Below, in pieces: positions 18,802 to 34,087 of a DNA stretch of 64,000 nt. Both the position numbers and the translations under genes were made by a program. Origin of the DNA: Aquabacterium humicola (GTDB lineage: Bacteria; Pseudomonadota; Gammaproteobacteria; Burkholderiales; Burkholderiaceae_C); assembly GCF_030167915.1 (NCBI RefSeq), contig NZ_JARGNB010000001.1, forward strand, positions 62,001 through 126,000. Direction: 5' to 3'. Under the pieces are notes generated by a model. It was not told the origin of the DNA. It worked only from the letters and a program-made list of their open reading frames with translations, and searched no databases. Position 1 is the stretch's first letter; the number at the start of each line of letters is the position of its first letter.

Positions 18802-18878
18802 GCCGTGACGCTTTCGAGGTAGGGGCGCATCACGTTGGCCAGCCGGCCGGACATGCGGACGACCGCTTGCCGGCGGCC
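18798..18878 (-). pseudogene. AbiEi antitoxin, C-terminal remnant
   Basis: A short frame ends ...RLANVMRPYLESVTA with its TGA overlapping the GTG start of the AbiEii remnant, the gene order and coupling seen in abiE operons. The VMRPYLE ending resembles AbiEi antitoxin C-termini. Upstream homology is lost within about 25 codons, and a related DYANVCRL segment appears in another frame, suggesting a frameshift. Identification rests on the short tail plus context, so confidence is moderate. Confidence 0.45.
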
Positions 18879-18981
18879 ACCAGGCGACACACGTTGGCGT
18901 AGTCTCCTGTCGGACCTCGCTGCTCTAATGGTGCACGCCGAACGGCGATGCTTGCCGCCGAAACATTGGGAGGGGTCGCCC

Positions 18982-20172
18982 TTGGACTTGAAAGCGTTGC
19001 AGACCACGCTGCGCGAGTTCGCAGCGGAACGCGCATGGCAGCCCTTCCACACGCCGAAGAACCTGGCGATGGCCTTGATGGTGGAAGCAGCGGAACTGGC
19101 CGAAATCTTCCAGTGGATGACGCCCGAGCAGTCGCAGGCGGCGGGTACGGACTCGATGACGCAGGAGCGGGTCGCGGACGAAGTGGCGGACGTCCTGCTC
19201 TACCTGCTCCAGATCGCCGATCGCACCGGCGTCGATCTGAAGCGGGCGGTGGGCCGCAAGCTCGTCAAGAACGCCAGGAAGCATCCGCCCGTGCGGCCCG
19301 GTCTTCCGTCAGGCTCATCCGGTCCGGCCCGGGTCGAGACCCATGTGCTCGTCGATTGGGAGAACGTGCAGCCGAACGACACCGATGTCCGAACTCTGGT
19401 GCCGGACGTGACCGACGTCTGGCTCTTCCATGGGCCAGACCAGAAGGCGGTGGGCGCACGGCACGCGTCATTCGGCGACAAGGTGACGTTGGTGAAGACC
19501 TCGCGTGCTGGAAAGAACTCGCTCGACATGCACCTGTCGTTCTACATGGGCCACATCGCCGCGCGCCACCCTGAAGCGCGTTTCGTGGTGGTCTCCAACG
19601 ACCAAGACTACTTGCCGATGCTGGAGCACGCCGCCGAACTGGGCTATGCGGCGCGACTGATCGGGTTTGATGCTGCTGGTGCCAAAGCGACGACCAAGAG
19701 CAGCCCGGCGAAGAAAGCCGGGCCTGCAGCCAAGAAGGCCGGGCCTGCGGCCAAGAAGGTGACGGCCAAGAAGACGCCGGCGAAGACCGCCGCCTCGAAG
19801 CCGAAGCCGGATCCTGCGAGCAAAGCAGTGCCCGCGTCCGCGAAAGAGCCAGCGAAGAAGACGCCGGCGGCGAAGAAGTCACCAGCGAAGAAGAAGCTGG
19901 CCGCCGGCCAGACGGCGGCGCCGGCGGGTTTCGATTCGACGCGAATCGATGGCGGCAGCGTGCCCGACCTGAACAAGGCGGTGAACCACGTCATCGCCAG
20001 CCTGAAGAAGACGACAAGCAGGCCGACCAAGCAGGCAAAGCTGCTGTCCACTGTGAAGTCGCTGCTCGGGCCGACCGGGAACGAGCAGTTGCTGAACTCG
20101 GTGCTGGCGCAGTTGTTTGCCAGCGGCAAGGTCACCATCGATGCGTCGGGCGCAGTGGCATATGCGCTGTGA
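18982..20172 (+). CDS. MazG-like NTP pyrophosphohydrolase fused to NYN/PIN-type nuclease with histone H1-like linker
   Basis: 396 residues from a TTG at 18982 placed seven bases after GGGAGGGG; an ATG at 18928 is possible but precedes the family N-terminus. Residues 1-105 form a MazG/dCTPase-like domain with the metal-binding E-x2-E in MVEAAELAEIFQW and the D-E-x2-D of VADEVADVLLYLLQIAD. Residues about 118-225 are an NYN/PIN-like domain with acidic residues in VLVDWENVQP, SLDMHL and VSNDQDYLP. A linker of about 75 residues follows, rich in Ala, Lys and Pro and resembling histone H1/AlgP tails, then a small helical C-terminal domain. NYN proteins with H1-like tails are common in this group; the N-terminal MazG fusion looks unusual. 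Expected activities are hydrolysis of (d)NTPs and metal-dependent RNA cleavage; the biological role is unknown. Confidence 0.85.
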   Translation: MDLKALQTTLREFAAERAWQPFHTPKNLAMALMVEAAELAEIFQWMTPEQSQAAGTDSMTQERVADEVADVLLYLLQIADRTGVDLKRAVGRKLVKNARKHPPVRPGLPSGSSGPARVETHVLVDWENVQPNDTDVRTLVPDVTDVWLFHGPDQKAVGARHASFGDKVTLVKTSRAGKNSLDMHLSFYMGHIAARHPEARFVVVSNDQDYLPMLEHAAELGYAARLIGFDAAGAKATTKSSPAKKAGPAAKKAGPAAKKVTAKKTPAKTAASKPKPDPASKAVPASAKEPAKKTPAAKKSPAKKKLAAGQTAAPAGFDSTRIDGGSVPDLNKAVNHVIASLKKTTSRPTKQAKLLSTVKSLLGPTGNEQLLNSVLAQLFASGKVTIDASGAVAYAL

Positions 20173-21190: not shown

Positions 21191-22465
21191 TCAGACGACG
21201 TCTGGTGGCGTGTCGCGGAAGAAGGAAGGCGGGAGCATGGCCTGCTCGAGCATCTCGATGCTGCGCTGTTCGACACCGCGTTCGGTGAAGAACTCGCGCC
21301 AGCCGCGGACGACGGCGAGCATCCCGTCGATCAGCGCCTGGGCCTCTTCCTTCGAGAGCCCGAACGCATCGCAGTGCGACAGGATGTTGTAGAGACTCGC
21401 GGCTCGACCAAAGCGGCCGACCTCGAGAGCCAAGTCCCGCCGCTCGACCGAGACCATGGCGACGGGCAGGATGTCGTACGCGGGTGATAGCCGCCAGCCA
21501 CCTCTGGTCTGCAAGAGCGCATGGTTGCGCGGATGGTCGTCGTTGTTGGTGACCATGGCGTTGAACACCATGCGGAGGAACAATTCGCGACGGTCATCGT
21601 TGCTCTTGACGGACCAGCGCCGAAGTTCATCCGCCAGCAGCCGGTACGACCAGCGCTCGCGACCGAGGTAGCCATCTTCAGCGTCAAGCACCGTCAGACC
21701 CGAGACAAGCCCGTAGCGCCAGTAGGCGTTGGCGTCCGGATTCCATTCGCGGTCGAAGCGGTCGAGCATCAGCGCGTCGCGGTTCGCGACGCGCTCGAGG
21801 CGGGTTCCGCAGACGCGAAGGCCGCTGGCGCGGGCCAACTCGAGTGTCGCGTACTCGATGCGCTGCATGTTGTGCCGGTCTGCCTTCTCAGGCAGTTTGG
21901 CCAGCCAGACTCTGTGGTCGTCCTCGACCGTCACTTTGGGTCTTGCACCACCCATGCTCGTGCCGGGTTCGAGTTCCTCGAGTACCTCGTGTGGAAGCCG
22001 TCCGTCTTCTTCCAACTTCTCGGCTGCTTCGATGAGGGCAGGCAGCTGATGCGTGCGATTGAAGCGTCGCCGCGGAGCGGGCGGAGTTGCGGTTCTTCCG
22101 AAGCTCAGGTTGCCAGCGCCATCGTCCGGCCCGTTGAGCACGTACTCCACTTCCTGGATGTCGCCTTCGGGCCGCTGCAGCTTGGCCTGAATGACTCGAC
22201 GGCCCCAGGCGTCCGGGCTCGCGTCACGAACGGCGCCGGGAATGCCCTTGAGCTTCGTGAACCTCTGAGGACGCGTCGACAAGGGTAGGTGGAACGGGTC
22301 CAAGGCCACCACCTCAGGCCGTTCGAGATAGCGCTTGCCGTACGTGAAGGTGCCTTCGAAGGCGCCTGCGCCGACGGCACGGACCTTGAGCGACGCGCAG
22401 GGCACCGTTTCCATCGTCCCAGGGAGCTGGATGTAGACGTAGCAGGCTTGTTCGTCGTTGGCCAT
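21191..22465 (-). CDS. hipA: HipA-family serine/threonine kinase toxin
   Basis: 424 residues, full length for HipA. The N-terminal subdomain is followed by a glycine-rich stretch (GTSMGGARPKVTV) with the ATP-loop lysine region (WLAKLP), the catalytic loop VTNNDDHPRNHALL containing the conserved DDHxxN, and the metal-binding SPAYDILP. Family members phosphorylate aminoacyl-tRNA synthetases (E. coli HipA modifies GltX), halting growth. It starts three bases after the stop of the HTH gene, so the two form a hipBA operon. All catalytic motifs look intact. The specific target here is unknown. Confidence 0.9.
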   Translation of the reverse strand: MANDEQACYVYIQLPGTMETVPCASLKVRAVGAGAFEGTFTYGKRYLERPEVVALDPFHLPLSTRPQRFTKLKGIPGAVRDASPDAWGRRVIQAKLQRPEGDIQEVEYVLNGPDDGAGNLSFGRTATPPAPRRRFNRTHQLPALIEAAEKLEEDGRLPHEVLEELEPGTSMGGARPKVTVEDDHRVWLAKLPEKADRHNMQRIEYATLELARASGLRVCGTRLERVANRDALMLDRFDREWNPDANAYWRYGLVSGLTVLDAEDGYLGRERWSYRLLADELRRWSVKSNDDRRELFLRMVFNAMVTNNDDHPRNHALLQTRGGWRLSPAYDILPVAMVSVERRDLALEVGRFGRAASLYNILSHCDAFGLSKEEAQALIDGMLAVVRGWREFFTERGVEQRSIEMLEQAMLPPSFFRDTPPDVV

Positions 22466-22468
22466 GGG

Positions 22469-22798
22469 TCAGAAGTCGTTGTCGCTGTCGAGCGGGTTGC
22501 GCACGCGCTTCGGCCTGCGGGCAGCCTCGAGAATCTTCCCGTGCTCGTCGGCATCGGGGTCGGCAAGCGCAGCCGCCGTGCTGAGCAGGCCGAGCTTCCA
22601 GAGCACGGTAAAGGCCGTGGCGACGGTTGCGCCTGATGCGCCTTTCTCGAGGGCGTACAGGGTCTTGCGGGTGATGCCGCAGGCTTGAGCGAGTTCTTCT
22701 TGGGTCAGGTGACGGCGGACGCGGGCGAGCCGGACGTTCTCGCCGAACCTCTGCGCTGCCGTGGTGACTTCCAGCGGAAGGGTCGTCTCGGTTGTCAT
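22469..22798 (-). CDS. hipB: HipB-type XRE antitoxin/repressor
   Basis: 109 residues: a helix-turn-helix domain (about 15-75) with LTQEELAQACGITRKTLYALEKG, preceded by a short acidic/threonine tail and followed by about 35 residues with charged ends. HipB proteins neutralise HipA and repress their operon. The gene immediately precedes hipA on the same strand. Five TACCCA/TGGGTA half-sites stand directly upstream, and the weak ribosome-binding region overlaps the first of them, consistent with autoregulation. Confidence 0.85.
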   Translation of the reverse strand: MTTETTLPLEVTTAAQRFGENVRLARVRRHLTQEELAQACGITRKTLYALEKGASGATVATAFTVLWKLGLLSTAAALADPDADEHGKILEAARRPKRVRNPLDSDNDF

Positions 22799-22938: not shown

Positions 22939-23214
22939 CTCTTCTTCGACCTGCATCAGGTGGCCACGATGCTGAGCATCAACTACTGCACCGCCTGGGA
23001 CCTGGTGAACACCGGCCGTATCAGCGCGATGCAGATCGGCCGCCGCTGGAAGCTTCGCGACGAGTGCTTGAACGAGCACTGGTTCGAGACGCTGCCCCAG
23101 GCCAGGGTGATCATCGCGAACTGGCGCCTGGACTACAACGAAGTGCGGCCCCACAGCAGTTGCGGCAGGATGCCACCGGCGAAGTTCGCTTCGCTACATC
23201 GCCAATCCAGGTAG
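22939..23214 (+). pseudogene. Chimera: excisionase-type HTH start joined to IS3 transposase OrfB tail
   Basis: The frame begins with a MerR/excisionase-type DNA-binding helix set (FFDLHQVATML...CTAWDLVNTGRISAMQIGRRWK). At about 23050 it changes without a break into the C-terminus of an IS3-family OrfB (RDECLNEHWFETL, RLDYNEVRPHSS, GRMPPAKF). The DDE core of the transposase is missing apart from this tail. A possible GTG start lies at 22960. It is a recombination scar, not a functional transposase; the HTH part could in principle still be expressed. Confidence 0.7.
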
Positions 23215-23480
23215 AACAGGCCCTGGTTGATGACGTTCTCGCCCATCGAGCGCTTGTATTCCAGGATGACGGGACAGTTGTTCTCGTCCAGGCCCAGCGA
23301 GTCGATCCGGCCCGCATGGGTCTTGCCGGTGGAGTACTCGGTGGCCAGGAAGCGGATGCCCAGCAGGGTGTCGAGGTTGGCCTCGATCAGCGTCTGCAGC
23401 GGCTTCTCCAGCTCGGATGCGTCACCCTGAAGCTCGAGGGCTTTACCGGCCTGCAGCCGGAAGAGTTTGATGTCACTCAT
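23133..23480 (-). pseudogene. NucS/DUF91-like nuclease-domain protein, C-terminus replaced by IS3 sequence
   Basis: From the ATG at 23480 the first 93 codons read as a PD-(D/E)xK-type domain. It has the predicted active site D in AGRIDSLG and E-x-K in PVILEYKR, and the conserved ENVINQGLFYLDW that ends the core in this family of uncharacterised proteins (often annotated DUF5655/NucS-like). At about 23200 the frame enters the antisense of the IS3 tail and stops at 23133, so the C-terminus is foreign. It is about 100 bases downstream of the HNH gene on the same strand and may once have been the sixth gene of the restriction operon. The nuclease motif itself survives. Confidence 0.65.
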
Positions 23481-23582
23481 GCTGCGGCCCCCAGCTGCTC
23501 GGGTCGTGCCGCGCGCACAGCGAGCCAAGGGAGCTTGCGGCGCCGCGGCATCTCAACCATGGGGACGGGTTGCCTCGTGCGC

Positions 23583-24683
23583 CTAGATGACTAACGCCAG
23601 TTCTGCCAACCAGGCCCGCGTTCGAGCCGGTTGCATCAGCGCGTGACTCAGCACGGAGTGCACTGCATGGTGCGGCTCGCTCGGCGAAAGAGTGGCAGTC
23701 CACTGTTGCACGTGCTGCTGGATCTCTGCCAACGAGTGCCTTGCTTGCCCCAGCGCAATTCGACGACGCTCCCGGCGGTGCAAGAGATCCTGATGCTTGG
23801 CATACTCGGCCTTGAATTCGCGCGTCCATCGGCTTGACAGGTTGAGCATGCCATCCAGATTGGTTGCCTTCGGCTGATCTGCTGGCGCGGCAGCGCACCG
23901 CACCGCGAAGGCAGGCGGCACATAGTCCAACTGCACGCAACCGTTGCCTGGACGCAAGTAGGGGTGGAACCAGTCCGCGAAACTCCCGGCGGAATGAACA
24001 GGCTTTTGCCCCTTGTTCGGCGCCTCGTTGCAGGTGCTGCAAATCAACTGCAGGTTGTCGGCACATACGCTTAGCAGTGGAAACGCGCCCTTGGTCACCC
24101 AGTGGTCGACGTGCGGGGTGTCGCCAAGGGGGCCGCCACAGAGAACGCAGACCTCGCGGGCATGCGGGTTCGGATTCAGGCGGTGCGCACCTCGAAACGC
24201 CCGCACATACTCTGCATAAGTCACCCCCCCGGCGGCTGTAGGCGTGCCATCGCCCTGATAGGGCAGGCCGTCGACGAAGCCTTTCTCGTAGACGGACTCC
24301 ATCAGCGCCTTGAACGTGTTCCAGTCCTGTTTGCTGGCAAGTGGCCGCGTCACTGGCCACACGGCCGCACCGGGTTGAAACTGTGCAGGCAGCGCCGAGA
24401 TCGTCTGCACCCAGGTCGCCAGGGCAGTCTTTTGCGCTGCAGGCAACGCTGCAATTGTCTGTGCGCGGCTCAGAAGGGTTTGCCCAGACTCGATGCGCTG
24501 GAGAAGACCCCATAACCAATCGGCCTCTATCGCCGTCAAAAGAACCGGCGGCTGTAGGCCCTGCTGGCTGACATGTGCAGGGGCGGTCGCAGGCTGGCAC
24601 AACCAAAGCGCGAATCGCTGCATCATTTGCTGGCACGCTGCCAGAGCCGGTGAGCACACGACGCGATGGACTGGCTTAAGCAT
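23583..24683 (-). CDS. HNH-type nuclease, partner of the restriction-associated ATPase
   Basis: 366 residues. The ATG at 24683 has GAGGTGG six bases upstream and overlaps the end of the ATPase gene by eight bases; a GTG at 24689 is an alternative. The N-terminal half is helical with no recognisable motif. A treble-clef HNH nuclease core follows: C179-x2-C182, the D-H-W of HVDHWVTKGAFPL near 195, and C-x2-C-N near 218 (LICSTCNEAPNKGQK). The C-terminal third is charged and helical. Cys4 HNH proteins of this type partner with AAA ATPases in defence systems such as Septu (PtuB). Here the gene is the last intact one of the hsd operon. DNA or RNA cleavage licensed by the ATPase is inferred. Confidence 0.8.
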   Translation of the reverse strand: MLKPVHRVVCSPALAACQQMMQRFALWLCQPATAPAHVSQQGLQPPVLLTAIEADWLWGLLQRIESGQTLLSRAQTIAALPAAQKTALATWVQTISALPAQFQPGAAVWPVTRPLASKQDWNTFKALMESVYEKGFVDGLPYQGDGTPTAAGGVTYAEYVRAFRGAHRLNPNPHAREVCVLCGGPLGDTPHVDHWVTKGAFPLLSVCADNLQLICSTCNEAPNKGQKPVHSAGSFADWFHPYLRPGNGCVQLDYVPPAFAVRCAAAPADQPKATNLDGMLNLSSRWTREFKAEYAKHQDLLHRRERRRIALGQARHSLAEIQQHVQQWTATLSPSEPHHAVHSVLSHALMQPARTRAWLAELALVI

Positions 24684-26478
24684 CGCCACCTCGCCACGTA
24701 TTCAGCAGCGTCCGCAACTCGCTGCGGTAAAAGCCGGAGCCCATTCGGTCGATCAGCCGCTCCAGATCAACAATTTCCGCCTGAGTGCCGGTCGCTTGTC
24801 GCAGCTTGTCCTCGATGAACTCTTGCGCTCGCTTGCCGATGCTGTCGTCTGCACCAAAGACCGTCATCATCAGCGCGCTGGGGTCGGTGCCGAAGGTTGG
24901 CTCGTCCACACTACGCACGGTCGAGCCGCTTGCACTCTTTTGAACCATCACGATTTCGTTGTTGAACACATCAGAAAGCACGATGGCTGAATGCGTGGAG
25001 ATCAGCACATCGTTGCTGGTGTGGCCGATGGCGTCGTCGATGATGTCGACGATCTCTCGCTTCCACTTGTCGTTAAAGTGGGTCTCGGGCTCGTCGAGCA
25101 GGAGCAGAGCGTCCTGCTGACCCTGCAGTAAGTGAAAGAGTGCCATGCGGCCCAGCACCATTTGTTCGCCGTCTGACAGCTCTTCGTAGCGAAGCACGCC
25201 GATGTCATCCGCCTCGTTCACATCGCCGTCGCCGGGCAGCGGTGCGCGTCGGAGGCGAATCAACAGATCGTCGAACAGTCCGACCTGGTTCAGTTCCAGC
25301 AGTCGAGTGAACAGCTCGAATGCGCTCGCATCCTTGGCCCCGCCCAACAAGGCCCACAGTGCTTCGCCATGGGTGGTGCATGTCTGAAGCTCGTCGCGGG
25401 CAGCCGAAGCGAAGCTCAGCGTCTGGGCATCGAACGCTCCCTTAAGGTCAAACACGAGGGTGCGGCGGGCTTCCGCCGGATGGGGTTCGGCGAACACTTC
25501 GCTCGCACACAGCCACCAGTCGTGCGCTGTCTCGCAGAGCTTCTGGTCCCACTGAGCCGCCTGCAAGCGTGAGCGGAAGGTCACTGACACCAGGTGATGC
25601 CATCCTCCGCGCTCCAAGAGTTCCTGAAGCCCGTTCTTGTTGTCGGAGCGACGACGAAGCCGAGCCATCGCGGCATCGGCTTTGGCACGACCAGGATAGT
25701 CCGTGGTCTCTATGAATGCCTGTGGCAGGGCCACCGCCAGCAACGCGCACTTGAGCAGGGTTGCATCCAGCAGCAGGGGGCGCCGGAAGCTATCAGCCTC
25801 CACAGGTGAAAGTCGTTTGTCGAGATCACGAGTTGCTTGAAAGGGTGGGCGGGCCGCTCGTAACGCGCGCTCCTGAGCAACGGTCCAGCCTGCCGGTCGC
25901 TCTTCCCCTTCGTTGTCAGCATCGCTGCGCTGCCAGCCCTCCGCGTTCTGGTTGCGACTCCAAACGGACCGCCACGGCCGGAGGTCGCCCGTTGTGTAGG
26001 CGAGCACTGCCGAGGGCAGCGCAATCTGGGGTGGCGTACTGTCGCGTTGTGGCCAGCGACCACGGTCAATCAGAGCCGTGAAACCCGGCACAGTAGGTAG
26101 CCCCTTGACCGCCAAATGCTCGATACACGCCTCAAAAACCTCTTGCCCGTTGTCGTCGTCGAACTGGAAGCGCTCGTGCAGCCACAAGCTAGCTTGTTGC
26201 CTGTCGCCGGGGCAGTGCAACAACAGGGTGCGGTGGCTCGGTGAGCCACGAACACCCAGTTCGTAGACCAGGCTTACGGGGAACGCTGGCACGCGCAAGT
26301 CGGCCAGTGCCAGGAATACTTCGGCGACGGCCCGTAGCAGATTGGACTTGCCGCTCCCGTTCACGCCAATCACAAACCGGATTGAGCATTCGCGCCCCAG
26401 TGGCGAGCCACTCGCGAAGCACACCTTGATGTTCGAGATCGGCGGATAGTTCTGAAGGTGAAGATAGCGCAGGCGCAT
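24676..26478 (-). CDS. Restriction-system-associated AAA/ABC-type ATPase
   Basis: 600 residues with the layout of OLD/RecF-like AAA ATPases. Walker A GVNGSGKS is at 38-45 right after an N-terminal beta strand pair, followed by a long helical insert (about 60-420), an ABC-type signature LSDGEQM, Walker B ALLLLDEPETHF near 460, an H-loop His in LISTHSAIVLSD, and a C-terminal helical tail. No Toprim domain is visible. Its ATG shares one base with the hsdS stop (TGATG), so expression depends on hsdS translation. The pattern agrees with the known family of ATPases encoded beside type I restriction genes, and with PtuA-like ATPases paired with HNH nucleases. It probably senses a DNA or replication intermediate and controls the HNH protein. 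Confidence 0.85.
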   Translation of the reverse strand: MRLRYLHLQNYPPISNIKVCFASGSPLGRECSIRFVIGVNGSGKSNLLRAVAEVFLALADLRVPAFPVSLVYELGVRGSPSHRTLLLHCPGDRQQASLWLHERFQFDDDNGQEVFEACIEHLAVKGLPTVPGFTALIDRGRWPQRDSTPPQIALPSAVLAYTTGDLRPWRSVWSRNQNAEGWQRSDADNEGEERPAGWTVAQERALRAARPPFQATRDLDKRLSPVEADSFRRPLLLDATLLKCALLAVALPQAFIETTDYPGRAKADAAMARLRRRSDNKNGLQELLERGGWHHLVSVTFRSRLQAAQWDQKLCETAHDWWLCASEVFAEPHPAEARRTLVFDLKGAFDAQTLSFASAARDELQTCTTHGEALWALLGGAKDASAFELFTRLLELNQVGLFDDLLIRLRRAPLPGDGDVNEADDIGVLRYEELSDGEQMVLGRMALFHLLQGQQDALLLLDEPETHFNDKWKREIVDIIDDAIGHTSNDVLISTHSAIVLSDVFNNEIVMVQKSASGSTVRSVDEPTFGTDPSALMMTVFGADDSIGKRAQEFIEDKLRQATGTQAEIVDLERLIDRMGSGFYRSELRTLLNTWRGGDA

Positions 26479-28208
26479 CAGTTCGCCTCCTCACCTGTGT
26501 CAGGCGCCATGGACTTGCGAAATACCTGCAGGTCTGCCAGACGCGTGTACTCGTCTTCGCGCAGGGGCCGGAACGCCTTCAGGTACTCGAGCTCGCCACT
26601 CTCCGTGTCGACCTTGGGCAAAGTGACCTTTGCGATCAAGCCCAGGGCTGCGAGTTGGCCGAGCGTGCGGCGGATACGGTTGCCTTGCGAGCTACCGTAG
26701 CTTTGCAGCCTTTCGGTCACTGACGTGTCGTCACAGAATCGCGCGAACACGTCCGGGTCCTCGACCAAGAGGGGCTCGCCGCTTGCTTCGCAATACGTGG
26801 TGAACGCCGCCAACACATGGCGCTGGAAGTCGCTCAGTTCGCCAAGCAGCCAATGGCGCGCGGGTCGGATAGTCAGATGGGCCTGCACCGAGGTCGTCGC
26901 GGTGATGGTGGCGCCGAGCGTGATCTTTGCGCCGCGCTCGCGCAGCAGCTCATCACGTACGAGTGCAGCCTGGGCAAGCTCTGCTGCGTGACTTTCCCTC
27001 CATTGAGCAGTGAGGTCACCCGACAACGCGCTGATGGTGAGGGCCGAACGCAGTGCTGTCGCAGCATCTTCCGACTTCCTAACGAGGCGACGAATCTCCC
27101 TGACCTGAAGCCACAGCTGGCGGAACCGCCTTTGCGCTTCGATATCCGGAACAGGCAATCGAACCTTGGCCAAGTTCTCACCGCTCAAGTTGCTCTGACC
27201 CGCTGTCGTTCTGATGGCATTCCTCATCGCCGCCCGGCCGTAGGCGCTGTTGAGGAAGGCGCTCAGATACTCGGGCAGCAAGCGGACGCCATCCGTTCGT
27301 AGGCGAATCAAGTACGACGCGTACACGATCACAGAATGGCAAACATCCTCAGTGATAGGCGCTGACCGCCCGACATACTCTGGGTTGCCATTGGATCGAA
27401 CAATCAACACGTCGGCCGCCGTCAATCGCAATCGGCCCAACTCAGCCTGAGTGAGCTCGACGTACTTCATGTCCGTGGTGTCAACTTCACCACCCATGAC
27501 GTTGGGGATGCGCAGCACCGGAACCCCGGTTGCCGCCGTCGCGTCGGCCGATACCGAAGTGCCGTAGCGCGTGTCAACTAGCGCGCCGAGTTGGACCCAT
27601 TCACCATCGTCGCGGTCAAGCACTAGTTGATCGAGTGCAGCCTTGATCAGTTGATCGAGATGTCCGCGCCGTTCGTTGACTTGGCTGAGGGCTTCTGCCT
27701 GCTGCAACACATCAACGATGCGCTGTTGCTCCGGCAGGGTCGGGAGCGGGAGTTTGACCCGACCCAAAAATTCTGGAGGGACTCTCTGCAAGCCGCCCGT
27801 ACCGACAAAGGCAGACGCGGCTCGGTCACGAAACGCCTGCTGACGAATGAAGCTGAACAGGAATTCAGGGAGTACCGCAGGCGTAGGACGGAGAACATGA
27901 AACTCGGTAGAACCGAATCCCATTCCATTCTGCAGTTGACGCGCAACTGCAGCCTTTCCGTTCTCCATACAAGGCGTGACCTTTGCGAACAGCACATCGC
28001 GTTCGCGAAAACTTGTGTAGCCTTTCGCCACCTCGCCGAACGTGCGCTCTTCCGGTTTGTCGATCTCACCCGCGGATTCGTTCACGGCGGACATCGGAAC
28101 AAAGGTCACTCGCAAATCGTCGGCGGGCCGCTCCTCGGCCAGCAGTCGAGGGTTCAGCTCGCAGACATCAGTGAGCCGCACCTCTGCCCAGGTCTCTGGA
28201 ATTCTCAT
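26478..28208 (-). CDS. hsdS: Type I restriction-modification specificity subunit HsdS with C-terminal extension
   Basis: 576 residues. Two target-recognition domains are each followed by a conserved helix: the first ends in LPLPTLPEQQRIVDVLQQAE, the second in VRLPVPDIEAQRRF. Such TRDs read the two halves of a bipartite DNA site. After about residue 415 the chain continues for some 150 residues, including GELSDFQRHVLAAF and RRTLGQLAALGLIAKV, which look like a winged-helix domain and are not part of normal HsdS (about 400-450 residues). The ATG overlaps the hsdM stop (ATGA) and the stop overlaps the ATPase start. Confidence 0.9.
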   Translation of the reverse strand: MRIPETWAEVRLTDVCELNPRLLAEERPADDLRVTFVPMSAVNESAGEIDKPEERTFGEVAKGYTSFRERDVLFAKVTPCMENGKAAVARQLQNGMGFGSTEFHVLRPTPAVLPEFLFSFIRQQAFRDRAASAFVGTGGLQRVPPEFLGRVKLPLPTLPEQQRIVDVLQQAEALSQVNERRGHLDQLIKAALDQLVLDRDDGEWVQLGALVDTRYGTSVSADATAATGVPVLRIPNVMGGEVDTTDMKYVELTQAELGRLRLTAADVLIVRSNGNPEYVGRSAPITEDVCHSVIVYASYLIRLRTDGVRLLPEYLSAFLNSAYGRAAMRNAIRTTAGQSNLSGENLAKVRLPVPDIEAQRRFRQLWLQVREIRRLVRKSEDAATALRSALTISALSGDLTAQWRESHAAELAQAALVRDELLRERGAKITLGATITATTSVQAHLTIRPARHWLLGELSDFQRHVLAAFTTYCEASGEPLLVEDPDVFARFCDDTSVTERLQSYGSSQGNRIRRTLGQLAALGLIAKVTLPKVDTESGELEYLKAFRPLREDEYTRLADLQVFRKSMAPDTGEEAN

Positions 28209-30733
28209 TCCCGTCCCTCCACCATCGCGAGCAGCTTGTCTAGGCCCCGAATGATGTCCAGCTCCGTCGTCCTTAGCGTACCAACCAGATCAGCTACGCT
28301 CTTGTCACTTTTGAGCTGAGTGAAGTCGAACGGCTTGTATTGGCCAGCGGACAGGTTCCACTCACGTGCCTCGATGCAGTCGGGGTCTAGCAGCCCGTCT
28401 TTGAGCGTGCCTTTGTCGTCGTACAGACCAGCAGCCAGCATGGCCTCAACATAGGCGAAACGCACAAGGCCGTCTGCGTCATGCGACCCAACGAGCTTGT
28501 CGTCCTCGCTGCGCCATTCATCGTTTCGCGCCCAGCTGCGAACCGGAACGACCCAGTGCTTGGTCGCTTGGAGTTCACTGGCTTGATCAACCTCCAGGCT
28601 GCGCAGCGTCACGTCGAAGCCGTCTAGCTTGGCGACTTCACGGGCGATGGCTTCAAGTGCAGCCTTGAGGTCAGCCACGGGGTCCTGCGGACTGAACCGC
28701 GACATGGGCGCCTGCTTGACGGAGTGCTCATGGAACGAGAGGCCGGCTTTGACGGCGTCCTTGACCATGTCCTTCCACAATTGCAAGGCAGGGCTGTCCT
28801 CCGCGTCGAAGAAGCTTTGAACCTCCTTTGCAGCCCGGTTGAAGTCTTGCTGCGGCACCTTGATGGCCTTTTGCCAGTCGGCCAAGGCATGCTCTGCGAT
28901 CATGGGCTTGTCGCCTGTACCCGCGGTGCGCCATTGCTCCCAGATCGGCTGCGTGGGGGGAGCAAAGTAGCGGATTACCAAGTCGTACAACTGCTGGCTC
29001 GCAGCATTGCGGACTTGTACTTCTGCGGCTTTCGGGTCCGCGGGCAGTTCAGGGAACAGCTCATGGATTCCCCATACATGCCCATCCCACATGCTGGTGT
29101 CAGGCAAGGCCGCGAAGGCCTCACCGGCCGGCGTGAGTTGATCCGCGGTATCGCGCAGCAGCGCCTGGCGCCAGCGCTCGACGCGAAAGCGAGGTTGCAG
29201 CAGCACCTTCTCGTGGCGCTGAGCACCTGTGCGGCCGTGCGCGATCCAGGCCTTGAACTTTTCCAGTGCATCCCAAAGGTCGTTCTGCTGGCCGGGCCGG
29301 GGATTGCGCTTGGCATCCTTCGAATAGCCGTCCTCCTCCACTTCGTAAAACCAGACGTGCTCAGTGCGCGGGGCCGCGCGGCTGGCGGAGGTGGGGCGTT
29401 CGTCTCGGCGAGTCTCTTTGCGAAAGATGAGAACCGAAGTCTTGACGCCGGTATACGGCTGAAAGACACCACCCGGCAGAGAGATGATGCCTTCGACTAC
29501 GTGCTCGCTCAGCAGCTCGCGGCGCAGGCGAACGTGAGCATCGGTACTTCCGAAAAGCACACCTTCGGGAATGATCACCGCGCATCGGCCGCCCACGCGC
29601 AGGAGGTCGAGCATCAGCCACAAGAAGAGCAACTCGCTCTTGTTGGTGATGCTTTCGTCCTTCTTCTTGCCGCTTCCGCCGACGCGCGGAAACAGCAGTG
29701 AATCGGGTTCCAGATCGCCGCTATCGACTGTGCCGGTGAAGGGCGGGTTGGCCAGGACAAAGTTGTAGGTCTCCGGTTCCAGTAGTTGCTTGAGTTGCCC
29801 CTTGCCTTCACGCTTGCTCAGGGAATCGCCCTGAAGCAGGTGGGGATCGGTCACATCATGGAGAACCAGGTTCATCCAGCCGATTCGCGCCATAGTGCGG
29901 TCGTTGTCGAGACCGACGAAGTTGGCGCCGTTGTGGATGGCGGTGTATTGCTCGGGCTCTGCTGCCGCGCCGTCTGTGCGATGCGGCGTGCCGTCCCACT
30001 CCAGCACCACCGTTTCTGGTGCCGTGTACTTGCGCATCAAATGCTGCTGTGTGCTAAACAGGAAGCCGCCCGTGCCGGCAGCGGGGTCGATCACTCGCTG
30101 GCCAGGCTCGGGGTCGAGCAGCTCGACCATGAAGCGAATCAAGTGGCGCGGCGTGCGGAATTGTCCGTTCTTGCCTGCAGTGGCGACCTCGCTGAGCAGG
30201 TATTCGAAGGTATCGCCCATGATGTCCTGGGCGGCATTGCCTTCACCGGCGCGGGCAAAGAGCTGGTCGATGGCGTCGATGGCGTCGCTCAGCACCTTGC
30301 CTTTGTTCGGATCGAGCTGAAAGTAGGCGTCGGCCATTCGGTCATCAACGCTGGCCAACTCCGTCCCGGCATCGTCAGTAGAAAGACGAGCGCCGATGGT
30401 CCGCAACCACGGGAAGACCTTTTCGATCAGATGCGAAGGCCTGGTCTTCTCTTGCCTGATGTAACTCCAGCGGCAAGACGTGGCGTCAAGCTGGGTGCGG
30501 AGTGCTTCCTTGGTATCGTCTGCGGCAGCCTCGATTTGTCGCTCTTCATCAGGCGTCAAGGCGTAGACGGAGCGGAGGCCACGCTCTACCCGCTTGCGAT
30601 CAATGTCCTCCAGGCGCTTGAGGAACAGGAGGTAGGTGATCTGCTCGACCGCGACCAGAGGATTCGTGAGGCCGGCAGACCAAAATCGATTCCAGAGTTC
30701 GTCGACCTTCTTCTTGATGTGTGGGGCAAGCAT
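28205..30733 (-). CDS. hsdM: Type I restriction-modification methyltransferase subunit HsdM (long form)
   Basis: 842 residues, longer than the usual 500-550. N-terminal helical HsdM_N domain (KKKVDELWNRFWSAG), then an N6-adenine methyltransferase domain with SAM-binding DPAAGTGGFL near 216 and catalytic NPPF near 328. About 300 extra C-terminal residues follow, of helical type, with no catalytic motif that I recognise. It methylates adenine at the site chosen by HsdS and is needed for restriction too. AGGA precedes the ATG; hsdR ends 20 bases upstream and hsdS overlaps the 3' end by four bases. Confidence 0.93.
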   Translation of the reverse strand: MLAPHIKKKVDELWNRFWSAGLTNPLVAVEQITYLLFLKRLEDIDRKRVERGLRSVYALTPDEERQIEAAADDTKEALRTQLDATSCRWSYIRQEKTRPSHLIEKVFPWLRTIGARLSTDDAGTELASVDDRMADAYFQLDPNKGKVLSDAIDAIDQLFARAGEGNAAQDIMGDTFEYLLSEVATAGKNGQFRTPRHLIRFMVELLDPEPGQRVIDPAAGTGGFLFSTQQHLMRKYTAPETVVLEWDGTPHRTDGAAAEPEQYTAIHNGANFVGLDNDRTMARIGWMNLVLHDVTDPHLLQGDSLSKREGKGQLKQLLEPETYNFVLANPPFTGTVDSGDLEPDSLLFPRVGGSGKKKDESITNKSELLFLWLMLDLLRVGGRCAVIIPEGVLFGSTDAHVRLRRELLSEHVVEGIISLPGGVFQPYTGVKTSVLIFRKETRRDERPTSASRAAPRTEHVWFYEVEEDGYSKDAKRNPRPGQQNDLWDALEKFKAWIAHGRTGAQRHEKVLLQPRFRVERWRQALLRDTADQLTPAGEAFAALPDTSMWDGHVWGIHELFPELPADPKAAEVQVRNAASQQLYDLVIRYFAPPTQPIWEQWRTAGTGDKPMIAEHALADWQKAIKVPQQDFNRAAKEVQSFFDAEDSPALQLWKDMVKDAVKAGLSFHEHSVKQAPMSRFSPQDPVADLKAALEAIAREVAKLDGFDVTLRSLEVDQASELQATKHWVVPVRSWARNDEWRSEDDKLVGSHDADGLVRFAYVEAMLAAGLYDDKGTLKDGLLDPDCIEAREWNLSAGQYKPFDFTQLKSDKSVADLVGTLRTTELDIIRGLDKLLAMVEGRE

Positions 30734-30753
30734 TCGGAGTCGTTCCTAAAGGG

Positions 30754-33498
30754 TTAGGCTGCGTCGTCCAACAGCTGGTTGGCCAAGGCGATGAGTTCGT
30801 TGATGTCCTGCGCAGGAAACAGCGCCTCCACACGACCCACGCGCGAAAGCGGGGGCTCGTTCAGCGCTGCGAGCGTGATGCGACCGTGACGAAGAACGGC
30901 GGCCTTCACTGCGCGCAAGAAGTTGAGCTGGTTGGCGCGCAGGTATCCGTGCTTCGAAATGAAGGTGTCAAACGCCGCATTGATCCGCTCTTCGCGGTTG
31001 GGCAGGTGTGCGCCTTCACATAGCATGTGCCGCAAAAAATCCGCAAGCGACGCAGCCGGCGCCTCGAAGGCCTTGCGCAGTGTCTCCTCCGTGACAAAGA
31101 GGTCCGCTTGATTCAGCGTGGCACTGATGCGCTCGATCTCGTCCTGGCCCAGGGTTTCGCCGTTCTTGAGTTTGGCCAGCTCGGGGAGTTGATCTGCCAG
31201 GCGGCGCACCAACGCTTCCACCTGCTCCCGATAGCTCTCTGCGAAGGCACCTTCGCCGGTCGGGCCGTAGATGATCCAGCTGCGTTGAGTGATGCTGTCG
31301 GGCAGGTTGATTTCCACCGTATTCCCAGCAGCGCGGGTGCGGTAGCGCATCAGCGGCGCAAACACGGTTTGCAGAGTGGCAAGCCGGTCCACATCAAGGT
31401 GCTTCCAGAACCCGTCGGACTGGACCCAGGAGCGCTGCTCGGCTACGCGCTGCACCTCGGGGATGCTATCGGCCAAGCTGGCCACCGCGCTCTGGATGCG
31501 CTCGCGTACCTTGCTCTGCTCATCGAGGTCGCCCTTGAGCCAGGCAACTGTCAGCCGCTCACACCAAATGCGGAACTGCAACTCGTCCAGTCCCGCTAGC
31601 GGCGCCAAGCGCATCAGCGGGCCAATGAGCAGCGACAGGTGTTCGAGCGTTTTAGGGTCGGGTGTGGGCCATTGCTGAGCCAGGGCGTCGAGCTCGTCCC
31701 AGTGCGGTCGGACATTGATGCTCTGGCGTGGCAGAGCCTGCAACATAGCTTGCAGCGCAGCAATGGCGTCCCGGGTGCCCTTTGCGTCGGGCTGCAGGCC
31801 GTGCAGCAACTGCCAAGCCTCCAGCCGCAGCCGAAACAAGCGCACGGGCAAGGGCTCGCTCGGGTGATCGATCTCACCGTCGGGCTTGAGCTTGAAGTAA
31901 GCGAAGTTCTTCCAGTGGTCGATGATCAGGAAGTCCTTCTTGATCTCGCCAGTGGCCTTGTCGACATGCAGACGCGTGCCGCGGCCGATCATCTGCCAGA
32001 ACTTGACCTTGCTGAAGACCGGCTTGGCAAAGACCAAATTTTGAATGGCTGGAACATCGACGCCCGTATCGAGCATGTCCACTGAAATGGCTACTCGTGG
32101 CATGGTGCGAAACTTGAAGTCGTCGAGCGTGCTGTCGGCGCGTTCCATATGGCTGTCGATGATCTCGGCCAGGCCTTGGCGTTGCAGCTCTGGGTACAAG
32201 CGATTGAAGCTCTCGTACAGCCGCTTTGCGTGGGCGTGACTGACTGCAAAGATGATGGACTTGTGGGGGAGCCCTCGAATGTCCTTGCGGCTCTTGTCCA
32301 TGAATTCGCGCACCATGGCGTCGTTCGTGCCTTGGTTGATGACGCCCTTCTCAATGTCGGAGCCGTCGAAATTGAGTTCGTCGGGTTCCACGCCTTGGTC
32401 ACGCGCCATCTGCTGGAGCGGCTGTGGTAGGGCGTCGCCCTGGATCCCCTTCAACTGGAAGTTGGTTTGCGCGTCCAGCACGCGGTAGTTCACGAGGTTC
32501 TTCTCAGCGACAGCCTGCTCATAGCTGTAGTAATAGCTCGGCACGCCATCCCCGCAATCGAACAGTTCAAATGTGTTGTGGTCGATATAGTCGGTTGGCG
32601 TCGCCGTCAGGCCAAGATGAATGGCATCGAAGTGATCAAAGACGGCCTTGTAGCGCTGGTAGATTGAGCGATGACTTTCGTCGGCGACGATCAGATCGTA
32701 GTAGCCCACTGACAGGCGTGAGTACACCTGCATCATGCTGGGGTAGGTGGAGAACTGGATGCGTGCACCCGACGTTTCGCCAGACTCGATACGCGCCAGG
32801 CTTTCATTGGGCAGGTGCGTCTTGAACTCCGACATGGCCTGGCGCACCAACTCCCGACGGTCCGCCAGGAAGAGCACTCGCTGCACGCGCTTCGATCGCA
32901 GCAGGGTGTCAACGAGTGCGATGGTCGTTCGCGTCTTGCCTGTGCCGGTAGCCATCACCAACAGGAATTTCCGCTTGGCGGCGTCTACCCCTTCCGTAAC
33001 TCGGCGGATGGCTTCGTTCTGGTAGTCGCGGCCGGCGATGCCCGCGTCGATCGCGATCCCGTCCAACGCCTGTGCGAACTGACTTTGGTGGCGCAGACGC
33101 TCGAGATCGTCCCTTGTGTAGAAGCCGGACACCTTTCGTGGCGGGTAGCGTTCGCGATCCCAGAACTGGATCTCTTTGCCATTGGTGAGGAAGATGAACG
33201 GGTCGTGGTCAAACTTGGACTTGATAGCGTCAGCGTAGTCGGCGGCTTGGCGCTTGCCGGCCAACTCGTCCCGCGCCGTCCGTTTGGCTTCCACGACTGC
33301 CAGCGGCTTGCCGTCGCTGCCGAGCAAGACGTAGTCTGCGAACTGCTGCCCGTCAAATGCGCGGTCTGGCTCTTTCGCTGTCACAACGAACTCTTCGATG
33401 AGGCTGCGGCGTGACTTGCTCCAGCCCGCTTGAGCAAGCTGGCTGTCGATGACCTGCGATCGCGTTGTTGCTTCGTTGGCGCTTGATGCAATCGACAT
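30754..33498 (-). CDS. hsdR: Type I restriction endonuclease subunit HsdR (EcoEI type)
   Basis: 914 residues from the ATG at 33498, with AGGGAGGA upstream; the longer frame to 33567 is leftover IS3 OrfA coding sequence. N-terminal nuclease domain with the PD-ExK core (E-x-K in LAVVEAKR near residue 70), superfamily 2 translocase with Walker A MATGTGKT near 185, DESH near 272, TATP, and VDMLDTGVDVP in lobe 2, and the EcoEI-type C-terminal domain. It cuts unmodified DNA after ATP-driven translocation in complex with HsdM and HsdS. First gene of the five-gene operon; its promoter must lie in or upstream of the IS3 fragment. Confidence 0.93.
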   Translation of the reverse strand: MSIASSANEATTRSQVIDSQLAQAGWSKSRRSLIEEFVVTAKEPDRAFDGQQFADYVLLGSDGKPLAVVEAKRTARDELAGKRQAADYADAIKSKFDHDPFIFLTNGKEIQFWDRERYPPRKVSGFYTRDDLERLRHQSQFAQALDGIAIDAGIAGRDYQNEAIRRVTEGVDAAKRKFLLVMATGTGKTRTTIALVDTLLRSKRVQRVLFLADRRELVRQAMSEFKTHLPNESLARIESGETSGARIQFSTYPSMMQVYSRLSVGYYDLIVADESHRSIYQRYKAVFDHFDAIHLGLTATPTDYIDHNTFELFDCGDGVPSYYYSYEQAVAEKNLVNYRVLDAQTNFQLKGIQGDALPQPLQQMARDQGVEPDELNFDGSDIEKGVINQGTNDAMVREFMDKSRKDIRGLPHKSIIFAVSHAHAKRLYESFNRLYPELQRQGLAEIIDSHMERADSTLDDFKFRTMPRVAISVDMLDTGVDVPAIQNLVFAKPVFSKVKFWQMIGRGTRLHVDKATGEIKKDFLIIDHWKNFAYFKLKPDGEIDHPSEPLPVRLFRLRLEAWQLLHGLQPDAKGTRDAIAALQAMLQALPRQSINVRPHWDELDALAQQWPTPDPKTLEHLSLLIGPLMRLAPLAGLDELQFRIWCERLTVAWLKGDLDEQSKVRERIQSAVASLADSIPEVQRVAEQRSWVQSDGFWKHLDVDRLATLQTVFAPLMRYRTRAAGNTVEINLPDSITQRSWIIYGPTGEGAFAESYREQVEALVRRLADQLPELAKLKNGETLGQDEIERISATLNQADLFVTEETLRKAFEAPAASLADFLRHMLCEGAHLPNREERINAAFDTFISKHGYLRANQLNFLRAVKAAVLRHGRITLAALNEPPLSRVGRVEALFPAQDINELIALANQLLDDAA

Positions 33499-33540: not shown

Positions 33541-33746
33541 AATCGAACATGCCTGCTCGGGCTTCATGACACCATTGCCGGGGGGACGATTGCTGCGGAT
33601 CGGACGCCTGCCGTGAACCCATTTGCGCGACGCGTTCTCGTGTACGTCCAGTCACGAGAGGCCCGCGCTTCCGTCACGCCCCGTTCCTTGACTAGCCTCA
33701 CGGCCTCAGGCTTGAACTCCCCGCTGAACTGCCGTCTCGTTCCCAT
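33541..33746 (-). pseudogene. IS3-family OrfA remnant with one frameshift
   Basis: The ATG at 33746 starts MGTRRQFSGEFKPEAVRLVKERGV, the N-terminus of an IS3-family OrfA. After ASRD one base is missing, and the protein continues in the next frame as DVHENASRKW and then NGVMKPEQA, which is the expected OrfA sequence. Similarity ends near 33541, about 45 bases before the hsdR start. OrfB is absent. It is a dead fragment marking a recombination point at the right side of the restriction operon; its group need not be that of the OrfB tail at 23.1 kb. Confidence 0.75.
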
Positions 33747-34011: not shown

Positions 34012-34087
34012 TGGCTCCCCGACCTGGGCTCGAACCAGGGACCTACGGATTAACAGTCCGGCGCTCTACCGACTGAGCTATCGGGGA
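34012..34087 (-). tRNA. tRNA-Asn (GTT)
   Basis: 76 bases with encoded CCA. The acceptor stem TCCCCGA pairs with TCGGGGA; the D-arm contains AGCTCAGTCGGTAGAGC, the anticodon loop CTGTTAAT with anticodon GTT, and the T-arm GGTTCGAGCC. A -10-like TATACT is 12 bases upstream (34100-34105 on the plus strand as AGTATA). Its 3' end faces the accessory island. Confidence 0.97.

What the first reader, a model, noticed from the sequence alone, without database searches (positions are those of the whole stretch)
23583..33498. Five-gene coupled operon: type I restriction-modification plus AAA ATPase and Cys4 HNH nuclease
hsdR, hsdM, hsdS, an OLD/RecF-like ATPase and an HNH protein lie on one strand with junctions of +20, -4, -1 and -8 bases. 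The last two genes are coupled by stop/start overlap to hsdS, so they are made in fixed proportion with the RM complex. ATPase-HNH pairs act on their own in Septu; ATPases next to type I systems are known as a family, but a joint RM/ATPase/HNH mechanism is, to my knowledge, not described. A testable idea: the ATPase detects DNA that HsdR has stalled on or failed to restrict and releases the HNH nuclease, as a second or abortive layer. A sixth gene (NucS-like) may once have belonged to it.
Basis: partly seen in the sequence, partly recalled or inferred. Interest (0 to 1): 0.78.

Follow-up and report, generated by a model that had tools for sequence, protein, structure and literature searches.

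The report
Restriction operon carrying a tethered Septu-like nuclease
A bacterial type I restriction-modification operon carries a second ATPase-nuclease pair related to the Septu phage defence, and relatives in several phyla suggest that this pair is docked on the DNA-recognition subunit and may even stand in for the usual cutting subunit.

Summary
In detail: hsdR, hsdM, hsdS, a PtuA-type ATPase and a Cys4 HNH protein, minus strand, junctions +20, -4, -1, -8. Among solved structures the ATPase is closest to Septu/retron PtuA. Of 47 ATPase-anchored loci, 35 of 35 above a cut-off set after looking have hsdS upstream, against 1 of 12 below it. (1) HsdS next to the ATPase has a long C-terminal extension (102 residues or more in 30 of 33) that control HsdS lack (78 or fewer in 54 of 55); one has a winged-helix-like predicted order. 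(2) HsdR was not found in 11 of 34 linked loci, against 0 of 20 Bacteroidota control loci. (3) ATPase and HNH evolve together, and in one relative both look exchanged. Best reading: a Septu-like effector held by the methylase-specificity complex through the HsdS tail, a second or alternative nuclease, resembling PrrC in EcoprrI and retron-Septu. Contact, trigger and substrate are not shown. The NucS link is not supported.

The parts
30754..33498 (-). hsdR, type I restriction subunit (EcoEI/EcoAI-like helicase-nuclease)
   Evidence: closest solved relative 3h1t, E 2e-40
28205..30733 (-). hsdM, N6-adenine methyltransferase subunit, 842 aa
   Evidence: N6_Mtase 3e-49, HsdM_N 6e-16
26478..28208 (-). 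hsdS, specificity subunit with two target-recognition domains
26481..27113 (-). part of hsdS after the second target-recognition domain: 211 residues, against a median of 30.5 in same-family control HsdS; proposed docking domain (window-type extension)
   Evidence: residues 451-550 are 80-86% identical in G042 and G096 while residues 201-400 are 24-40%
24676..26478 (-). OLD/PtuA-type ABC ATPase, 600 aa
   Evidence: PDB PtuA chains E about 1e-16 with alignment A1; PADLOC PtuA1 1e-29; TIGR04435 115 bits, cut-off 300
26344..26367 (-). Walker A, GVNGSGKS (residues 38-45)
   Evidence: G-x-NGSGKS invariant in 9 aligned sequences
25078..25107 (-). Walker B region, residues 458-467, with DEPE at 462-465
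   Evidence: D462, E463, P464, E465 and H467 invariant in 9 aligned sequences
24679..24981 (-). ATPase C-terminal 101 residues, dissimilar together with the HNH gene in the Pantoea relative
23583..24683 (-). Cys4 HNH nuclease, 366 aa
24027..24149 (-). HNH core: C179, C182, D193, H194, N210, C215, C218, N219
23133..23528 (-). NucS-like fragment, matching only the first 110 or so residues of its profile; judged NOT part of the system
   Evidence: PDC-S18 profile matched over 10-110 of 365; integrase (rve_3) remnant overlapping its end on the other strand

Best explanation
A type I restriction-modification enzyme with a second, Septu-like effector. HsdM and HsdS form the methylating, site-reading complex. 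The C-terminal extension of HsdS holds the ATPase, and the ATPase C-terminus holds the HNH nuclease. While cell DNA is methylated the pair is kept silent. When the M-S complex meets unmethylated target sites on invading DNA, or is itself put out of action by a phage inhibitor, the ATPase changes state and lets the HNH nuclease cut. HsdR is a separate and dispensable nuclease of the same complex; in some relatives the pair stands without it. Shown by sequence here: gene order, intact motifs, the ATPase-HNH partnership, the HsdS extension, and absence of a neighbouring HsdR in some loci. Inferred: the physical contacts, the silencing, the trigger and the substrate (DNA or tRNA).
For: hsdS upstream of the ATPase in 35 of 35 clear relatives (26 of 26 if the 9 rows used to build the profile are left out), 1 of 12 weaker ones (cut-off chosen after seeing the data). 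In the tree 33 linked ATPases are separated from 7 unlinked ones by a branch with support 98/94. HNH directly downstream by profile in 32 of 35; in the other three a match to the TIGR02646 HNH model in L039, below its cut-off, and HNH-like motifs seen by eye in L027 and L073. HsdS tail of 102 residues or more in 30 of 33 adjacent cases; controls 18-60 in 26 of 26 same-family HsdS and 18-78 in 28 of 29 Bacteroidota HsdS (Mann-Whitney p 3e-10 for the first comparison). In the three linked loci where hsdS and the ATPase lie 1.8-1.9 kb apart the tail is only 26-31. Tail of L078 HsdS predicted helix-strand-helix-helix-strand-strand, block pLDDT 75-82, which I read as a winged helix. HsdR not found in 11 of 34 linked loci versus 0 of 20 controls (Fisher p 0.004), among them the whole 41.6-kb plasmid pHsw2 and the first 100 of 109 kb of the Priestia plasmid; on the tree starred branches force at least three changes of this trait. 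ATPase-HNH distances correlate (rho 0.76), as do HsdR-HsdM (0.88); pairs across these two modules 0.34-0.54 (22 loci). In the Pantoea relative HsdR is 85% and ATPase residues 1-500 about 70% identical, while the last 100 ATPase residues (16-30%) and the whole HNH protein (25%) are not. Precedents, from passages only: PtuAB sequester-and-release (PMC12948488), PtuAB and tRNA-Tyr (PMC11555353, PMC13096335), PrrC inside a type I enzyme (PMC3874165, PMC12707154).
Against: No experiment. Three adjacent cases have no long tail (L027 23, L037 68, L041 72), one control HsdS (L129) without a tail is followed by a weaker ATPase match, and one control (L135) has a 232-residue tail of another kind. The main tail profile also matches control HsdS that have short tails (L130 E 6e-6, L129 8e-3, L138 0.15, L142 0.49), presumably through the stretch just after the recognition domain, so it is not a clean marker. 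The window's own tail belongs to a sequence class not alignable with the main class (hhalign probability 0.7%), so its winged-helix nature is not shown; it also ends some 70-80 residues before those of its three closest relatives. The HNH model is too poor to use (mean pLDDT 45). HsdR absence was judged in loci of 16.5-21 kb, about 5-6 kb upstream of hsdM; an HsdR in trans is possible. All 20 controls are Bacteroidota, 9 of the 20 and 7 of the 34 linked loci were themselves HsdR query sources; with only the 11 other controls and without the broken loci L022 and L036 the comparison weakens to p 0.08. A third of the R-less loci (L022, L036, L038) have broken ATPase genes or, in L022, broken hsd genes.
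Confidence: 0.55

Rival explanations
1. Guard model, PrrC-like: the RM complex keeps the pair silent and is not its targeting device. Phage inhibitors of type I enzymes (Ocr- or Stp-like) release it, and the HNH nuclease cuts host tRNA or other nucleic acid, stopping the infected cell.
For: EcoprrI/PrrC precedent (PMC3874165, PMC12707154, passages); PtuAB of retron-Eco7 depletes tRNA-Tyr and one Septu cleaves it (PMC11555353, PMC13096335, passages); PARIS senses Ocr (passage in PMC12839542); HsdS tail as tether.
Against: Loci without HsdR have no restriction of their own for a phage to inhibit, so a pure guard makes less sense there; another Septu PtuAB and retron-Septu Ec83 are reported to cut DNA (passages of PMC11555353 and PMC12948488).
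Confidence: 0.25
2. Plain co-transcription: a stand-alone Septu that happens to be moved and expressed with a type I RM system, each acting on its own.
For: Septu works as a two-gene system (PMC13096335, passages); weaker relatives of the pair do stand alone (11 of 12); two partly separate co-evolving modules, R-M and ATPase-HNH.
Against: One branch of ATPases tied to hsdS, long HsdS tail mainly where the ATPase is next to it, absence of HsdR while HsdM and HsdS stay.
Confidence: 0.13
3. The pair is a brake or assembly factor for the RM enzyme (for example protecting the host while HsdR is active) and not an effector.
For: Nothing found here speaks for it directly; host proteins that restrain type I enzymes are known, such as ClpX acting on EcoKI (passage of PMC12707154).
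Against: Conserved HNH catalytic residues and loci without HsdR, where nothing needs a brake.
Confidence: 0.04
4. Decayed passenger genes without function.
For: A transposase remnant and a truncated NucS-like gene lie beside the operon, and 3 of 36 linked relatives have split ATPase genes.
Against: All five window frames open, motifs intact, dN/dS 0.06-0.13 for the four genes other than hsdS.
Confidence: 0.03

Closest known systems
Septu type I (PtuA + PtuB)
   Same: OLD-type ABC ATPase gene followed by an HNH gene; PtuA chains are the best solved matches; PADLOC PtuA1 profile E 1e-29
   Different: lies in an hsd operon; HNH protein 366 aa with the HNH core at 179-219, against 215 aa with the match at 41-79 for a solved PtuB chain; far below the NCBIfam PtuA cut-off
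Retron-Septu (type I-A retrons Eco7/Ec78, Ec83)
   Same: PtuAB-like pair that would be under control of a partner that senses infection; sequester-and-release is reported for Ec83 (review passage, PMC12948488)
   Different: the partner here would be HsdM-HsdS; none of the ten window ORFs scanned matched a reverse transcriptase
EcoprrI-PrrC
   Same: a nuclease gene inside a type I operon whose product is held by the RM enzyme (PMC3874165, PMC12707154, passages); PrrC has an ABC-ATPase domain (PMC11555353, passage)
   Different: PrrC is one protein (its HEPN-type nuclease domain is recalled); here two proteins with an HNH nuclease, after hsdS, and with an HsdS tail
TIGR04435 restriction system-associated AAA ATPase (NCBIfam)
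   Same: the family by name and by gene neighbourhood; 8 of 247 genomes sampled from the phylum of G940 (a Flavobacterium; G940 included) pass its cut-off
   Different: the window ATPase scores 115 bits against a cut-off of 300 and lies in a sub-branch apart from the members above the cut-off
PARIS (AriA/AriB)
   Same: OLD-type ATPase plus nuclease as a backup to restriction-type systems (passage in PMC12839542); AriA is among the solved matches, E 7e-9
   Different: TOPRIM nuclease, not HNH; that it is not tied to hsdS is recalled
Type I RM, EcoEI/EcoAI-like
   Same: HsdR, HsdM and HsdS all present with their domains
   Different: the two extra genes and the HsdS tail

Membership tests
Type I restriction-modification | HsdR with helicase and HSDR_N nuclease domains | tested here: met
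Type I restriction-modification | HsdM N6-methylase and HsdS with two recognition domains | tested here: met
Type I restriction-modification | methylation and restriction activity | not testable with these tools
   no methylome or assay
Septu (PtuAB) | PtuA-like ATPase with Walker A and B | tested here: met
Septu (PtuAB) | PtuB-like HNH protein | tested here: inconclusive
   HNH motif conserved; PADLOC PtuB1 3.6e-7; PDB PtuB only E 0.63; no NCBIfam match; predicted model unusable
Septu (PtuAB) | curated NCBIfam PtuA score | tested here: not met
   NF041760 30 bits, cut-off 500
Septu (PtuAB) | stand-alone two-gene system | tested here: not met
   hsdS upstream here and in 35 of 35 clear relatives, window included
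Septu (PtuAB) | 6:2 PtuA-PtuB oligomer | not testable with these tools
   ratio from a table in PMC12948488; no complex prediction was available
TIGR04435 | score above 300 bits | tested here: not met
   115.5 bits; relatives L014, L046-L048 and L055-L061 are above it
PrrC/EcoprrI | single-chain ABC-ATPase anticodon nuclease | tested here: not met
   two separate genes, HNH instead
PrrC/EcoprrI | nuclease sequestered by the type I enzyme | not testable with these tools
   HsdS tail is suggestive only
Retron-Septu | reverse transcriptase next to ptuAB | tested here: not met
   no reverse-transcriptase match among the ten window ORFs scanned with Pfam; not every ORF was scanned

The most novel reading that the evidence does not exclude
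A class of methylation-gated Septu systems: HsdM and an HsdS with a docking tail act as sensor and switch of a PtuAB-like nuclease, which in several lineages has replaced HsdR altogether, giving a type I-like restriction system without a translocating restriction subunit.
Probability: 0.35. Interest if true: 0.82.

Novelty: new variant of a known kind. Interest (0 to 1): 0.62.

Why it matters
If right, an hsd operon can carry two interchangeable cutting modules on one site-reading core, and the HsdS tail helps to tell which systems do. It would give Septu-type nucleases a third kind of master (after none and retrons), explain some hsdM-hsdS operons without hsdR, and offer a tail-based lead to backup effectors in RM systems, which the profile libraries used here split into type I RM and Septu or candidate-system calls.

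Tried and rejected
HNH protein against viral contigs and ATPase against viral contigs by single sequence: no relative. ATPase against phage records: no match. AlphaFold model of the HNH protein: mean pLDDT 45, not interpreted and not searched. Homology of the window-type HsdS tail to the main tail class: not found. tRNA-Asn as attachment site: no exact repeat of 12-30 bases of its sequence found elsewhere in the window. NucS as sixth gene: rejected. Promoter and terminator scans: at or below chance level. A first HsdR scan of control loci missed many HsdR and was replaced by a wider one with 16 queries. Two weak ATPase hits left out at first (Priestia megaterium p1, and a second place in G936) were fetched at the end; both have an HNH gene and no hsd match. 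Papers: the Septu structure paper, the ABC-ATPase classification and the retron-Septu Science paper are not held; I used only passages of other papers. No paper was read whole. That the HsdS tail or HsdR replacement is not in print rests on searches alone.
Full report
What is there. HsdR, HsdM and HsdS are an ordinary EcoEI/EcoAI-like type I set by domain content. The fourth gene is an OLD-type ABC ATPase: Pfam AAA_21 (E 5.5e-16), PADLOC PtuA1 (1e-29), and, with an alignment of nine sequences, PtuA chains as the best solved matches (E about 1e-16). The fifth is an HNH protein with four zinc-type cysteines and a DH...N...CN core that is kept in an alignment of 10 sequences, but with only weak sequence matches to PtuB.

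Relatives. Starting from the ATPase I collected 47 loci, the window included: three same-family genomes, plasmids, samples of the class and of three phyla with the NCBIfam model or the alignment, and related-loci scans with one further place in G936. The ATPase is rare: at E 1e-20 with TIGR04435, 7 of 398 genomes of the window's phylum (G000 and G042 among the seven), 10 of 247 in the phylum of G940 (G940 among them) and 2 of 199 in the phylum of G943. I called frames and scanned them with phmmer and profiles built here. With the ATPase profile at E 1e-36 or better, 35 of 35 loci have hsdS upstream on the same strand; below that, 1 of 12 (L038, where the ATPase gene is split). The cut-off was set after seeing the values, and the margin is thin: the weakest linked loci have 3e-37, the strongest unlinked 1e-35 and 1e-34. 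Nine of the 35 were training rows; the other 26 behave alike. In the tree, 33 linked ATPases (the three with broken genes left out) are split from seven unlinked ones by a branch with support 98/94.

Gene order. The usual order is (hsdR) hsdM hsdS ATPase HNH, with frames touching or overlapping. Variants: a second methylase between hsdS and the ATPase on Herpetosiphon pHAU02; two ORFs there in L023 and a 1.9-kb stretch in L077 that I did not examine; hsdM after HNH in L036 and L042; GIY-YIG and hypothetical genes between hsdM and hsdS in Sphingobium.

HsdS tail. I measured residues after the last recognition domain with one profile for all proteins. Adjacent linked HsdS: 33 proteins, median 156, 30 of them 102 or more (exceptions L027 23, L037 68, L041 72). 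Left out of the count: two N-terminal fragments and the three non-adjacent cases, which have 26-31. Same-family controls: 26 proteins, 18-60, after leaving out the window's own locus, two fragments and one duplicate. Bacteroidota controls: 29 of 30 loci (one not central was left out), 28 at 18-78 and one (L135) at 232 with a tail of another kind; one of the 28 (L129) is followed by a weaker ATPase match. Most tails belong to one class: a profile built without a group finds 16 of 21 members of the left-out groups at E 1 or better, 11 of 21 at 0.01 or better. The full profile also matches four short-tailed Bacteroidota controls, best E 6e-6, so part of it lies in the stretch that all HsdS share. 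Pfam gave no significant match in the tails of the nine HsdS scanned. For L078 the tail is predicted as helix-strand-helix-helix-strand-strand, the order of a winged helix; the whole-model search lists HsdS structures first and MarR/SlyA-type winged-helix proteins far below, at E about 0.7-0.9. The window's tail is a second class; its residues 451-550 are 80-86% identical in G042 and G096 and 66-72% in Pantoea although residues 201-400 are 22-42% in all three.

HsdR. With 16 HsdR queries, HsdR was found in 23 of 34 linked loci with enough flank (L025 and L068 were too short) and in 20 of 20 Bacteroidota control hsd loci. Nine of the 20 and seven of the 34 were themselves query sources; 11 of 11 of the other controls were found. 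The 11 without are L009, L022, L024, L027, L036, L038, L039, L045, L071, L072 and L073; L022, L036 and L038 also have broken ATPase genes. Pfam scans of some large neighbours of L024, L027, L038, L039, L071, L072 and L073 showed no HsdR. No HsdR match was found on the whole of pHsw2 (L045) or on the first 100 of 109 kb of the Priestia plasmid (L009); that plasmid does carry genes annotated 'restriction endonuclease' at 41-42 and 49.6-51.6 kb. HsdM keeps its NPPF motif in the nine R-less loci that I checked. The tree needs four changes for this trait and starred branches force three. So the pair does not depend on a neighbouring HsdR, and in such loci it is the only candidate nuclease of the operon that I saw.

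Partnership. Over 22 loci with HsdR, ATPase and HNH distances agree (rho 0.76), HsdR and HsdM agree (0.88), pairs across the two modules less (0.34-0.54). Against the Pantoea plasmid operon the ATPase is about 70% identical up to residue 500, then 16-30%, and the HNH protein is 25%. This is what a swap of a cassette 'ATPase C-terminus + HNH' would leave, and points to the ATPase C-terminus as the HNH contact; it is one case.

Mechanism. The published relatives offer two templates: PtuAB sequestered by retron msDNA and released on infection (PMC12948488, passage), and PrrC sequestered in a type I enzyme and released on inhibition (PMC3874165, PMC12707154, passages). Here HsdM-HsdS would be the sequestering, sensing partner and the HsdS tail the tether. 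HsdR-free loci favour sensing of unmethylated DNA over pure guarding of restriction, but do not decide. Substrate: both DNA cutting and tRNA-Tyr cleavage or loss are reported for PtuAB systems (PMC11555353, PMC13096335, PMC12948488, passages).

Novelty. TIGR04435 shows that the ATPase-RM link was noticed; PMC12839542 says coupled OLD-ABC nucleases in RM-like systems were reported before (references 52 and 142, not read). PMC11811056 reports that PADLOC calls of PDC-M62 and PDC-M01 often duplicate Septu calls (passage). Other defence genes inside type I operons are known, such as DarTG2 (PMC12255303, passages). I found no text on the HsdS tail or on HsdR replacement in searches of the held library, which lacks most subscription papers. 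I file it as a new variant of a known kind.

Noticed in passing
window 21191-22798 (-): HipA-like kinase with HTH partner (HipBA toxin-antitoxin type) next to the RM island.
   Followed up: no
window 23133-23528 (-): NucS-like candidate defence gene (PDC-S18 profile) that stops matching at about residue 110; a 301-aa relative with a DUF5655 domain is in L071.
   Followed up: partly
window 22960-23214 (+) and about 33640-33746 (-): Transposase remnants on both sides of the operon: an integrase (rve_3) piece, and on the right a stretch that looks like the start of an IS3-type OrfA, read by eye; the IS3 label is recalled.
   Followed up: no
window 34012-34087 (-): tRNA-Asn whose 3' end faces the lower-GC stretch of about 22-34 kb (GC 0.60-0.63 against 0.66-0.76 elsewhere), as at many island insertion sites; no repeat of it found in the window.
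   Followed up: partly
window 18835-20172 (+): One ORF with a MazG-like and a PIN7/NYN domain in the same frame; the start codon is unsure.
   Followed up: no
window 26478-26800 (-): The window's HsdS ends about 70-80 residues earlier than in its three closest relatives, yet keeps the stop/start overlap with the ATPase.
   Followed up: partly
L135 760-2724: A Bacteroidota HsdS with a 232-residue C-terminal extension of another kind and no PtuA-like ATPase match in the short locus.
   Followed up: no
L156 3384-14333: hsdR-hsdM-hsdS followed by a weaker PtuA-like ATPase and a second HsdR-like helicase; HsdS without a tail.
   Followed up: no
L023 7346-9206: Two ORFs between hsdS and the ATPase; the larger has a weak tRNA nucleotidyltransferase match, below Pfam's cut-off.
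   Followed up: no
L071, L072: Behind the HsdR-less operon lie two opposite-strand ORFs (patatin-like in L071, the one scanned) and a NucS-like gene, possibly further defence genes.
   Followed up: no
L168 6888-10538: A stand-alone ATPase-HNH pair followed by a second HNH gene on a Priestia megaterium plasmid, with no hsd gene in the 16 kb seen.
   Followed up: partly
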